The position numbers and the translations under genes are program-made. Positions 34,625 through 41,893 of a stretch of 42,167 nucleotides of DNA are shown piece by piece. The DNA lies in NCBI GenBank assembly GCA_026991225.1, contig JALXCB010000146.1, positions 1-42,167 on the forward strand, given 5' to 3'. Each line of letters starts with the position of its first letter. The stretch's first letter is position 1. The notes below the pieces were generated by a model. The model worked only from the letters and a program-made list of their open reading frames with translations. It searched no databases and was not told the origin of the DNA. This DNA is from Anaerolineae bacterium (lineage in GTDB: Bacteria > Chloroflexota > Anaerolineae > J102).

Positions 34625-34695
34625 AGTAATCAGTTATCAGTAACCAGTAATCAGTGGGAATCTGCGTTGCATCTGCGCAAATCAGCGTCCTATTT
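34625..34695. repeat. CAGTAAT heptamer array plus CTGCG words
   Basis: 34625-34658 is a run of 7-nt units (CAGTTAT, CAGTAAC, CAGTAAT, CAGTGGG). ATCTGCGTTGCATCTGCGCAAATCAGCG words follow to 34695. The remainder to 34778 has a CTTCCCGCGCCAGCC fragment of the composite repeat and no gene. Confidence 0.6.
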
Positions 34696-37517: not shown

Positions 37518-37550
37518 GGACTGATCACTGATTACTGATCACTGCTCACT
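37518..37550 (-). repeat. CAGTGAT heptamer array overlapping the lysS 3' end
   Basis: On the - strand GAGTGAGCAGTGATCAGTAA, then TCAGTGATCAG: 7-nt units of the same type as 34625-34658 and 39064-39103. It provides the last codons and the stop of lysS. Confidence 0.65.
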
Positions 37551-39063: not shown

Positions 39064-39103
39064 GGAACCAGTGAGCAGTGAGCAGTGAGCAGTAATCAGT
39101 GGG
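39064..39103 (+). repeat. CAGTGAG heptamer array between greA and lysS
   Basis: CCAGTGA GCAGTGA GCAGTGA GCAGTAA TCAGTGG, five 7-nt units in register, fill nearly all of the 50-nt gap between the greA stop and the lysS start. Confidence 0.7.
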
Positions 39104-39106
39104 ATG

Positions 39107-39589
39107 TCATTCGATGGCGATGATCTCGAAGGTGACTTCGCCGCCGGGGGTTTTCACGGTGACGACGTCACCGATTTTCTTCCCGACCAGGGCTTTGCCG
39201 ATGGGCGATTCGTTGGAAATCTTGCCATCGCCCGGCGAGGCTTCGGCGGAGCCGACGATGGTGTATTGCTCCTCATCGCCGAATTCCTTGTCCACAATGG
39301 TCACGGTGCGGCCGAGCTGGACGCTATCCGCGGGCCCGTCATCGGGATCGATGATCACGGCGTATTTCAATTTTTGCTGCAATTCCATGATGCGGCCTTC
39401 GTTCATGCCGGCCTGATATTTGGCCTCGTCATAGCCTGCATTCTCGGAAAGATCGCCCTCCTTGCGGGCGGCCTCGATCTGTTTGGCGATCTCCGGGCGG
39501 CGCACGTTGATGCGCCAATCCAGCTCTTCCTTGATCTTCTTCAACCCCTCGGGGGTGAGATAGACGACTTTTTCGTTGTCTGTGGACAT
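39107..39589 (-). CDS. greA: Transcription elongation factor GreA
   Basis: Enters the RNA polymerase secondary channel and triggers cleavage of backtracked RNA; 160 residues. Seen are the N-terminal coiled coil (YLTPEGLKKIKEELDWRI) and the tip motif ARKEGDLSENAGYDEAK, with the acidic D and E residues that act in catalysis. The C-terminal FKBP-like domain has TIVGSAEASPGDGKISNESPIGKALVGKKIGD. GGAGCACC lies upstream of the ATG. The 5' leader is about 150 nt long with a promoter and an intrinsic terminator, implying attenuation. lysS follows. Confidence 0.97.
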   Translation of the reverse strand: MSTDNEKVVYLTPEGLKKIKEELDWRINVRRPEIAKQIEAARKEGDLSENAGYDEAKYQAGMNEGRIMELQQKLKYAVIIDPDDGPADSVQLGRTVTIVDKEFGDEEQYTIVGSAEASPGDGKISNESPIGKALVGKKIGDVVTVKTPGGEVTFEIIAIE

Positions 39590-39691
39590 GGCAGGTGCTC
39601 CGATTTCGAAAATGGTCGCGGCAAACTGCTCGATATCACGGGCGTTTGTATTCCCATGTGCATGGTCGCCCCGGATTGCCGCGGATTCCAC

Positions 39692-39722
39692 AAAAAAAGA
39701 ACTGAGGCGCTGCCCAGTTCTT
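39692..39722 (-). terminator. Intrinsic terminator within the greA leader
   Basis: On the - strand AAGAACTG (39715-39722), a 10-nt loop and CAGTTCTT (39697-39704) form a perfect 8-bp stem. Inner GGC/GCC bases can extend it. Seven Ts follow (39692-39698, overlapping the stem end). It lies about 20-45 nt after the expected start point and about 100 nt before the greA ATG, so it would end most transcripts as RNAs of roughly 45 nt unless overridden. Confidence 0.8.
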
Positions 39723-39745
39723 GGCATCGGTGGAAGTGAGCATTC

Positions 39746-39774
39746 ATTATACAAAAACTCAGGCGAGGAAGCAA
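39746..39774 (-). promoter_or_regulatory. greA promoter
   Basis: On the - strand TTGCTT (39769-39774) and TATAAT (39746-39751) with a 17-nt spacer. The expected start point is near 39739. It is divergent from the subtilase gene. Confidence 0.7.
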
Positions 39775-39832: not shown

Positions 39833-41893
39833 ATGATGAAGTATCTTTTGACTGCAATTGCGCTCCTGGCGATGATCTTGTGGCTGACGGTTGGGGTGCA
39901 GGGATCGCCAGAATTGCCGCCCGAAGCGCCCAAACCGGACGCCTCGCCTCTGGCGGCCAGTCTGCGCGGCCTGGCCCATGCAGGGGGCCTTTCGCCCGGG
40001 CAGGAGGCCGCGGCCCGGGCCCTGGGCGTGTGGGCGGGCCCTGACCATCTGCGCGTGATCCTGGAGGCCGAGGGGCCCGTGCGCCTGCCTCCGGGCGTGG
40101 AGCTGGAACTGCGTCGGGGTGACCGATGGCAGGTGCGGGCGCTGCGTTCGGCCCTGCCAAAACTGGCCGCGCTGCCGGGCGTGCGACGCATACGTCCACC
40201 TCTGCCCCATGCGCCGGCGCTGGTCATCGGCGAAGGGCTGGCTCCGGGCGGGTTCTATCCCTGGATCAACTCGGGCTGGAATGGCGCGGGCGTGCACATC
40301 GCGGTCGTCGATCTGGGATTTGCCGGATGGCAGGGCCTCAGCCAGGCGGGCGAGCTGCCCGCGTTCGTGGGCACGCGCAACTTCCGCGCGGATGGCCAAT
40401 TCGAGACCACTCAGCATGGCTCTGCCGTGGCCGAGATCGTCTATGACGCCGCGCCCGGAGCCACCATCTCCCTCTTCGCCGTGAACACCGAATTGGAGCT
40501 GGATCAGGCCGTGGATGAAGCCATCCGCCAGGGCGTGGACGTCATCGTCCATGCCATCAGTTGGTTCAACACCGGCCCGGGCGATGGTTCGGGCGCGCTG
40601 GGCGATATCGTGCGCAAGGCCGATGCTGCGGATATCCTTTGGGTGGCGGCCGCGGGCAACCAGGCCCGGCGCTATTATGCGGGCTACTTCACCCCCTCGC
40701 CTTTGCACCCCTCCCGCCATGTCTTCGCCAACAGCGACGAAGGCAACGACGTCTATCTGCAACAGGGCCAGACCGTGTGCGGCATGTTGAGCTGGGATGA
40801 TTGGCCCACGACGGTGGATGACTACGATCTCTACCTCTATCGCGGCGAGCAGTGGGTGGCCCGTTCCGATGATGAACAGAACGGCGTACAGCCTCCCACC
40901 GAGGCCCTTTGCTACACCGCGGCCGAAACGGACGTCTACAGCTTCGTCATCGTCCACTATTCCCAGAATTATCCCCCTGTGCTGATGCGGCTTTTCGCAA
41001 CCGGGGCTGACCTTCAGTATACGACGCCCGCAGGCTCGCTCGTCCAGCCCGCGGACGCGGCCGAAGCCCTGACCATGGGGGCGATCTTCTGGCAAGACCC
41101 TTATCCGCTGGAGCCGTTCAGCAGCCTGGGCCCCACCACCGATGGTCGCACCAAGCCCGATCTGGCCGCCTACGATGGCGTCAGCACAGTCACCTATGGC
41201 CTCAGCAATGGCGCGGGGTTCGACGAAGGCGGGACGGGCTTTTTCGGCACCTCGGCCAGCGCGCCCCTGGCGGGCGGCGCGGCCGCGCTGGTGCGCCAGC
41301 GCTATCCCGGTTGGGATACGACGGCGGTGCGGGAATTTCTCATGAACTGGGCCATCGATATCGGCATTCCCGGCCCGGACAATGAAACCGGCAATGGACG
41401 ACTCCACTTGCCCGCATCACAACCCACCATCACCCCCACGGTCACGCAAACCACCACGGCCACGCCCACGTCGACCCCATCTCCGACGCCCACGCACACC
41501 CCCACGCCGACCCCGACGCCCACGGTCACGCCTACGCCAACCCCCTCCATCACCTTCACGCCCACGCCTTCCGTTCCCTGGCTCGATCTCCAGCCCGAAG
41601 GGCTGATCCCCGGCCTGCTGGCTCCCCAAACCGCGGTCATCTCCTGGGGAAATCACGACTTTGGCGACCTTTTACGGCTCAATCTGACCGGCCCCGTCCA
41701 CTTTTCCGGCGGCGAAACGTCTCAAACACGAGTCCTGCCCGACGAAAGCGGCTATCTTACCATTATGATTCTGACGGATGAACCGGTGCAGCCGGGCGCA
41801 TCTTTCACCCTCGACATGCGCAGCCCCCGCGCCCGACTCACTCGCGAAGGCGTCATCGCCCGCACCTGGTATCTGCCCGTGATTCGAAGATGA
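39833..41893 (+). CDS. Secreted subtilisin-like serine protease (S8) with Pro/Thr linker
   Basis: 686 residues with a signal peptide (MMKYLLTAIALLAMILWLTVGVQG). The S8 triad is Asp160 in IAVVDLGF, His195 in TTQHGSAVAEI and Ser474 in GTSASAPLAGGAAAL. The oxyanion Asn is likely in VAAAGNQARR. Between His and Ser sits an insert with a jelly-roll-like stretch (QTVCGMLSWDDWPTTVDDYDLYLYRGEQW), as in pre-peptidase C-terminal domains. After the protease come a Thr/Pro-rich linker (about 526-577) and an about 105-residue beta-rich C-terminal domain of unknown kind. It probably digests protein outside the cell, feeding importers such as the one at the window start. TAAAAT lies 6-11 nt before the ATG and no ribosome site is seen. 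Confidence 0.92.
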   Translation: MMKYLLTAIALLAMILWLTVGVQGSPELPPEAPKPDASPLAASLRGLAHAGGLSPGQEAAARALGVWAGPDHLRVILEAEGPVRLPPGVELELRRGDRWQVRALRSALPKLAALPGVRRIRPPLPHAPALVIGEGLAPGGFYPWINSGWNGAGVHIAVVDLGFAGWQGLSQAGELPAFVGTRNFRADGQFETTQHGSAVAEIVYDAAPGATISLFAVNTELELDQAVDEAIRQGVDVIVHAISWFNTGPGDGSGALGDIVRKADAADILWVAAAGNQARRYYAGYFTPSPLHPSRHVFANSDEGNDVYLQQGQTVCGMLSWDDWPTTVDDYDLYLYRGEQWVARSDDEQNGVQPPTEALCYTAAETDVYSFVIVHYSQNYPPVLMRLFATGADLQYTTPAGSLVQPADAAEALTMGAIFWQDPYPLEPFSSLGPTTDGRTKPDLAAYDGVSTVTYGLSNGAGFDEGGTGFFGTSASAPLAGGAAALVRQRYPGWDTTAVREFLMNWAIDIGIPGPDNETGNGRLHLPASQPTITPTVTQTTTATPTSTPSPTPTHTPTPTPTPTVTPTPTPSITFTPTPSVPWLDLQPEGLIPGLLAPQTAVISWGNHDFGDLLRLNLTGPVHFSGGETSQTRVLPDESGYLTIMILTDEPVQPGASFTLDMRSPRARLTREGVIARTWYLPVIRR

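What the first reader, a model, noticed from the sequence alone, without database searches (positions are those of the whole stretch)
39590..39774. Intrinsic terminator in the greA leader: likely attenuation and a small RNA
A promoter at 39746-39774 is followed within about 45 nt by a perfect stem and a T7 run, about 100 nt before the greA ATG. In E. coli, greA leader termination yields short GraL RNAs and links greA level to transcript cleavage. A similar layout in this distant lineage would point to a conserved or convergent self-control of GreA.
Basis: partly seen in the sequence, partly recalled or inferred. Interest (0 to 1): 0.55.

Follow-up and report, generated by a model that had tools for sequence, protein, structure and literature searches.

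The report
Conserved stop hairpin before greA
Just after the start of the message for GreA, a protein that frees stalled RNA polymerase, this bacterium has a small RNA hairpin built to stop transcription, and its sequence is kept in front of greA in many relatives across the phylum, which points to a long-kept brake on GreA production.

Summary
greA (39589-39107, minus strand, followed by lysS) has a promoter-like TTGCTT-17-TATAAT, then about 25 nt later a hairpin (39722-39697) with a T run, predicting a ~48-nt RNA ending ~100 nt before the ATG. The layout is not chance: 2 of 203 leaders sampled in this genome have it, and one of those is greA.

All 18 greA leaders found in the family keep the hairpin, with arms 91-97% identical while flanks are 27-37% identical. 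A covariance model finds it in 400 Chloroflexota genomes at 52 places, 48 of them just upstream of greA (placements). Terminators after tmRNA in 7 of these relatives mostly do not share arms.

The best reading is a promoter-proximal attenuator of greA(-lysS), working like E. coli GraL but with unrelated sequence. greA leader attenuators were already reported in Proteobacteria, bacilli and Clostridia (PMC2965389). What I did not find in print is a phylum-wide, sequence-conserved version here. Termination, the short RNA, and control by GreA itself are untested inferences.

The parts
39769..39774 (-). -35 element TTGCTT (family form TTGCCA/TTGNNN)
   Evidence: read; TTG kept in 18 of 18 family leaders with spacer 17-18; below the consensus threshold
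39746..39751 (-). -10 element TATAAT
   Evidence: TATAAT or TATACT in 18 of 18 family leaders
39739..39739 (-). predicted transcription start (7th base after the -10; not mapped)
   Evidence: inference from -10 position
39723..39739 (-). short unpaired 5' leader, not conserved
   Evidence: 32.6% identity across the family in the 14 nt before the arm; antiterminator complementarity above shuffles in 0 of 18
39697..39722 (-). conserved terminator hairpin; arms AAGAACTGGG / CTCAGTTCTT, variable loop
   Evidence: alignments A1/A3; models R1/R2
39692..39698 (-). T7 tract, predicted 3' end of the ~48-nt RNA
39590..39691 (-). rest of the greA 5' UTR, reached only by read-through
   Evidence: no second promoter listed on the minus strand
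39107..39589 (-). greA, transcription elongation (transcript cleavage) factor GreA
   Evidence: TIGR01462 184 bits (cut-off 139), NF001263 187.5 bits; only copy in the genome
37539..39056 (-). lysS, lysine--tRNA ligase, next gene of the same strand
   Evidence: TIGR00499 609 bits; greA-lysS order kept in most relatives

Best explanation
A housekeeping promoter starts RNA at about 39739. After about 18 nt the nascent RNA forms the GAACTGRG/CTCAGTTC hairpin, and at the T run polymerase either releases a ~48-nt RNA or reads on into greA (and lysS). The hairpin is therefore a promoter-proximal attenuator that sets the share of polymerases reaching greA. Because the sequence of the arms is kept, not just their pairing, something probably reads the hairpin: polymerase itself or a bound factor. 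The likeliest purpose is feedback on GreA level, as reported for E. coli GraL, where more GreA means more termination. SHOWN here: the elements, their layout, and their conservation at greA across the phylum. INFERRED: termination in the cell, the short RNA, recognition of the arms, and feedback by GreA. I put about 0.85 on 'terminator-type attenuator of greA' and about 0.4-0.45 on GreA feedback.
For: Family: 18 of 18 greA leaders keep promoter, hairpin and T run, with predicted RNAs of 47-54 nt. Chance: arrangement in 15 of 18 family, 20 of 46 other-class and 13 of 66 phylum greA leaders by one fixed rule, against 0.4, 0.9 and 0.8% of shuffles and 2 of 203 ORF leaders of this genome, one being greA. 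Location: model R1, 22 of 22 distinct places with E below 0.006 in 199 class genomes lie upstream of greA, 18 of them training sequences. Model R2, 48 of 52 places in 400 phylum genomes; among the 24 places not used in training, 20 of 24. Structure: 91.1% of cells paired over 60 sequences, 30 cells changed on both sides against 10.9 in shuffles. RNA rather than DNA: arm-to-arm span varies from 18 to 27 nt and 27 of 60 rows carry one-sided G-U pairs. Arms 91.0 and 97.3% identical, flanks 26.9-36.7%; tmRNA terminators of 7 family members mostly have unrelated arms. E. coli precedent: switching the GraL terminator arms while keeping the pairing abolished GreA repression in log phase (PMC6829880 section 2.5).
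Against: No RNA data of any kind. 12 of 60 aligned motif leaders have only 4-6 Ts in the ten bases after the hairpin, so some may terminate poorly. Most phylum genomes lack a detectable copy (348 of 400 without a match at E 0.01), although some of the leaders read have other hairpins. By the strict rule 53 of 66 phylum leaders and 26 of 46 other-class leaders do not show the arrangement. No antiterminator was found (0 of 18), so how read-through would be regulated is unknown. GreA feedback in E. coli was seen in vivo but not in vitro (PMC6829880). The shuffle control also leaves the counts 'pairs with a change on both sides' and 'further pair types' unremarkable (335 and 88 of 500 shuffles as high).
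Confidence: 0.62

Rival explanations
1. A fixed-strength attenuator: the hairpin simply lowers greA output from a strong promoter by a constant factor, with no sensing and no feedback.
For: No antiterminator partner in 0 of 18 leaders; leader before the hairpin only 12-21 nt; where the motif is absent some greA leaders still have a different promoter-proximal hairpin (11 of 36 other-class leaders without the motif pass the strict rule).
Against: A fixed brake needs pairing and a U run, not particular letters, yet the arms are kept across the phylum while tmRNA terminators mostly are not.
Confidence: 0.3
2. A recognised RNA element for some other factor or signal: polymerase, a Nus-type factor or an unknown RNA-binding protein binds the hairpin and controls the greA-lysS operon for reasons other than GreA level.
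For: Conserved letters in the paired arms; hairpin better kept than the U run in some lineages.
Against: No candidate binder identified; the element is tied to greA and not seen as a multi-gene regulon: of the three other pattern matches in the genome two lie inside called ORFs and the third shows no terminator.
Confidence: 0.3
3. The leader senses lysine or tRNA-Lys for lysS, the second gene (a T-box-like attenuator).
For: greA-lysS order is kept in most relatives.
Against: Leader before the terminator only ~18 nt, no room for T-box domains; no Rfam family at gathering score in 12 loci nor up to E 5 in the window leader apart from one sub-threshold hit inside greA on the other strand. L024, L127, L141, L148 and L149 carry the hairpin before greA with no lysS in the stretch held; none of 11 non-greA model hits has lysS.
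Confidence: 0.05
4. Primarily a trans-acting small RNA gene whose leaky terminator feeds greA.
For: E. coli GraL is reported to act in trans as well as in cis (PMC6829880).
Against: The unpaired 5' part and the loop, where a seed would sit, are not conserved even in the family (32.6% identity in the 14 nt before the arm; alignment).
Confidence: 0.1
5. A DNA operator palindrome for a repressor of greA.
For: ACTGAGAG-N-CTCTCAGT is a dyad; some places scored on both strands.
Against: Span between half-sites varies 18-27 and 27 of 60 rows carry one-sided G-U changes that keep RNA pairing but break DNA symmetry; in the window the T run is on one side only.
Confidence: 0.05
6. Terminator of an upstream transcript rather than of the greA leader.
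For: It is a one-directional intrinsic terminator.
Against: The upstream neighbour is divergent (subtilase-like ORF 39833-41893 +); a promoter-like pair of boxes sits just before the hairpin in 18 of 18 family leaders.
Confidence: 0.04

Closest known systems
GraL, the greA leader RNA of Escherichia coli (PMC6829880; Potrykus 2010 known only through that paper and PMC2965389)
   Same: Promoter, ~20 nt, hairpin, T7, roughly 90 nt, greA ATG (E. coli leader read); reported short RNAs of 37-59 nt against 47-54 nt predicted here; sequence of the terminator arms matters in E. coli and is conserved here.
   Different: No sequence resemblance of the hairpins by eye (GACCTGGG.../CCCGGGTC against AGAACTGRG/CTCAGTTCT); two overlapping promoters in E. 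coli, one seen here; greA is followed by lysS here; GreA feedback and trans action untested here.
greA- and rnk-leaders of Naville and Gautheret 2010 (PMC2965389)
   Same: Intrinsic terminator in the greA 5' region, recurring across many species.
   Different: They report Proteobacteria, bacilli and Clostridia and an antiterminator in each case; the main text has no occurrence of 'Chloroflex'. Here no antiterminator was found and one hairpin sequence spans many families of the phylum.
T-box and riboswitch leaders
   Same: Terminator in a 5' leader, here of an operon with a tRNA synthetase gene.
   Different: No aptamer or specifier domain fits in ~18 nt; no Rfam match at gathering score.

Membership tests
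greA-leader attenuators (kind described in PMC2965389) | intrinsic terminator in the same direction as greA and within 300 nt of its first codon | tested here: met
   102 nt from T run to ATG; criterion from section 19 of the paper
greA-leader attenuators (kind described in PMC2965389) | recurs upstream of greA in many species | tested here: met
   18 of 18 family leaders; 48 of 52 model places in 400 genomes
greA-leader attenuators (kind described in PMC2965389) | antiterminator structure, reported there for each cluster | tested here: not met
   5' leader no more complementary to the arm than shuffles in 18 of 18; downstream partners not tested systematically
GraL of Escherichia coli | promoter with terminator within ~60 nt in the greA leader | tested here: met
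   E. coli layout
GraL of Escherichia coli | sequence homology to GraL | tested here: not met
   compared by eye only, no alignment run
GraL of Escherichia coli | short RNAs made in the cell | not testable with these tools
   no RNA data
GraL of Escherichia coli | GreA raises termination at the leader | not testable with these tools
   needs a GreA-level experiment
T-box leader | T-box domains before the terminator | tested here: not met
   no Rfam match at gathering score; only ~18 nt before the hairpin
any Rfam 15 family | gathering-score match over the leader | tested here: not met
   window leader, up to E 5; 12 loci

The most novel reading that the evidence does not exclude
The ACTGAGAG/CTCTCAGT hairpin is a specifically recognised RNA element, an undescribed cis-regulatory family of Chloroflexota, through which elongating polymerase (or a factor on it) measures GreA activity a few dozen bases after initiation; E. 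coli GraL would be an independent or very ancient version of the same circuit, with sequence dependence in both.
Probability: 0.35. Interest if true: 0.75.

Novelty: new variant of a known kind. Interest (0 to 1): 0.52.

Why it matters
GreA rescues stalled polymerase and proofreads transcription, and how its level is set is poorly understood even in E. coli, where feedback through GraL is seen in cells but not in a purified system (PMC6829880). A second, sequence-conserved version in a distant phylum would show that putting greA behind a promoter-proximal terminator is a recurring solution. It would also supply dozens of natural variants showing which letters matter, making the recognition question directly testable. 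Ordinary terminators change freely; one whose arms stay put across a phylum probably has a reader to be found.

Tried and rejected
Regulon idea: the pattern ACTGRGN{3,14}CTCAGT occurs 4 times in the genome; the copies at C130 and C190 lie inside called ORFs, the C31 copy has no terminator features in the bases printed, and the greA copy is the only one seen in a leader. Rejected as a regulon.

Antiterminator: 5' leader against 5' arm compared with shuffles, 0 of 18 at rank below 0.05. Not found.

Outer helix UUCCAC/GUGGAA around the window hairpin: single-sequence prediction, not checked in relatives, not used.

DNA operator, T-box and upstream-gene terminator: see rivals.

Specificity outside the phylum: R2 in 6 genomes of other phyla gave places in 3, none with greA in the loci checked; in 101 genomes of the phylum of the Priestia genome, 4 genomes had a place at E 0.001 and no greA was found at them. 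So a model hit alone is not proof of the element in low-GC genomes; several hits printed there look like ordinary terminators. The element was not searched for in other phyla beyond these.

Class-level weak hits: L115-L118 and L122 have no greA; the nine class places of R1 with E up to 0.05 for which no locus was kept were mostly not checked. Six phylum hits of R1 likewise lack greA (L128, L130, L131, L135, L136, L140).

tmRNA control: 7 loci of the 21 genomes searched were used (the family members whose tmRNA passed the cut-off); two of the three genus members (L279, L282) do share related arms, the other five differ.

Rows left out of counts: leaders L029 (14 nt upstream) and L086 (greA not found) from the class set, so 46 of 48; phylum leaders are 66, one place per genome with near-duplicates skipped and four already counted dropped, out of more than 150 greA places listed. 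L068 was added to A1 by hand after the regular expression missed it. A3 left out L134 (identical to L133). ORFs in the control were called by a simple longest-ORF rule, not a gene finder.

No paper found on a greA leader in Chloroflexota; (Chloroflexi + greA + terminator, whole words) returned none. Read: PMC6829880 outline with abstract, introduction, section 2.5 and discussion; PMC2965389 outline with abstract, five passages and section 19; PMC2864571, PMC8060035, PMC8632094 and PMC7815308 by term look-up only. Potrykus 2010 (PMC2836576) is not held, so what I say of it comes from the two papers citing it. Supplementary tables were not readable, so Chloroflexota could be in the species list of PMC2965389.

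Full report
WHAT WAS CLAIMED. A promoter at 39746-39774, a stem with a T7 run about 45 nt later, about 100 nt before greA, read as a GraL-like attenuator.

CHECK. All parts are there: TTGCTT 39774-39769, TATAAT 39751-39746, stem-loop 39722-39697, Ts to 39692, greA ATG 39589. The gene is greA (TIGR01462, 184 bits against a cut-off of 139) and the next is lysS; greA is single in the genome. The ~48-nt predicted RNA folds at -13.6 kcal/mol, z -2.70. The bare terminator is not unusual for the region (3 found, 2.3 expected) and the -35 is too weak for that scan. The conjunction is unusual: a fixed rule (-10 with at most one mismatch, terminator 8-50 nt later) is met by 2 of 203 ORF leaders in 283 kb of this genome, one of them greA.

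RELATIVES. Of 20 genomes of the family, 18 have greA, and all 18 leaders carry promoter, hairpin and T run. In every one the -35 begins TTG, the spacer is 17-18, the -10 is TATAAT or TATACT, and the predicted RNA is 47-54 nt. The 8-nt arms are 100% identical in the genus and 91.0/97.3% in the family, while the 14 nt before the arm are 32.6%, the 14 after the T run 36.7%, and the next 14 are 26.9% identical in the family. So the hairpin is conserved as letters, in a leader that is otherwise nearly random.

BEYOND THE FAMILY. Ten of 46 other-class leaders carry the same core, ACTGAG...CTCAGT. Model R1 (28 sequences) searched in 199 class genomes gave 22 distinct places with E below 0.006, all 22 upstream of greA; 18 of these were training sequences and 4 were not. 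In 301 phylum genomes it found further greA leaders in other families, notably f65, and six places without greA among those checked. Model R2 (60 sequences) in 400 phylum genomes gave 52 places at E 0.01 or better: 48 upstream of greA, 4 not (G335, G453, G317, G530) (placement). Of the 24 places not in its training set, 20 are at greA; two of these are copies of training sequences or nearly so (G441, G468). The 48 fall in 18 families. 348 of 400 genomes had no match.

LAYOUT WITHOUT THE LETTERS. By the fixed rule the promoter-terminator arrangement is present in 15 of 18 family, 20 of 46 other-class and 13 of 66 phylum greA leaders, against 0.4, 0.9 and 0.8% of dinucleotide shuffles. Some lineages without the motif have their own hairpin after the promoter (f27, f61, f67). 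So the arrangement is commoner at greA than chance even where the sequence differs, but it is far from universal.

RNA OR DNA. Over 60 sequences 91.1% of pair cells are standard, with 30 doubly changed cells against 10.9 in shuffles; two of the five measures do not exceed shuffles. The ACTG-to-CAGT span ranges from 18 to 27 nt, and 27 of 60 rows have a one-sided G-U pair in the core. Both favour an RNA hairpin over a DNA operator.

IS IT JUST A TERMINATOR? Terminators after tmRNA in 7 family members mostly have unrelated arms, though two genus members resemble each other. Twelve of 60 motif leaders have only 4-6 Ts in the ten bases after the hairpin. So the arms seem held by something more than termination; recognition by polymerase or a factor is an inference. 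No antiterminator is seen (0 of 18).

OPERON. lysS follows greA in most relatives with enough DNA. In L024, L127, L141, L148 and L149 the hairpin precedes greA with no lysS in the stretch held, and none of 11 non-greA hits has lysS, so the element goes with greA.

KNOWN KIND. In E. coli about a third of transcripts pass the GraL terminator, the short RNAs are 37-59 nt, catalytically active GreA is needed for repression, and both the 5' sequence and the arm letters matter (PMC6829880). The K-12 leader has the same order of parts and no visible sequence kinship. Naville and Gautheret already listed greA/rnk among the gene families most often attenuated, in Proteobacteria, bacilli and Clostridia, with an antiterminator in each case (PMC2965389). 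The kind is therefore known; the phylum-wide sequence-conserved Chloroflexota form was not found in print nor in Rfam 15.

VERDICT. Observation confirmed; attenuator reading well supported by comparison; GreA self-control and small-RNA function untested. New variant of a known kind, interest 0.52.

Noticed in passing
L152, L156-L158, L162-L164, L167, L173 (family f27 greA leaders): A different recurring hairpin, about TTGCATCTC...GAGATGCAAA in most of them, lies about 45 nt after the -10, just before greA; seen by eye.
   Followed up: no
L159, L168, L174, L177 (family f61) and L186, L198, L205 (family f67): Other promoter-proximal terminator-like hairpins before greA: GCTTCAGG...CCTGGAGC with T6, and GCCCCG...CGGGGC with a T-rich tail (by eye).
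   Followed up: no
L009, L011, L012, L017 greA leaders: A second terminator-like hairpin (GGCGC...GCGCC type with a T run) follows the conserved one before greA (by eye).
   Followed up: no
L119 (genome G146): A divergent greA paralogue (34% identity) also has the conserved hairpin in its leader.
   Followed up: partly
window 39069-39101, 37520-37550, 34625-34655: Period-7 tandem arrays (CAGTGAG, ACTGATC, AGTAATC) near gene ends; similar ACTGAACACTGA runs stand upstream of greA in L004 and L017.
   Followed up: no
L050 and L052 (Elusimicrobia): A tRNA-like sequence sits just upstream of greA (by eye; no tRNA scan run).
   Followed up: no
window 39833-41893 +: Divergent subtilase-like ORF (weak mycosin match) with a Thr-Pro-rich repeat at 41431-41544.
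   Followed up: no
window 39686-39735: UUCCAC and GUGGAA could form an outer helix round the terminator; not checked in relatives.
   Followed up: no
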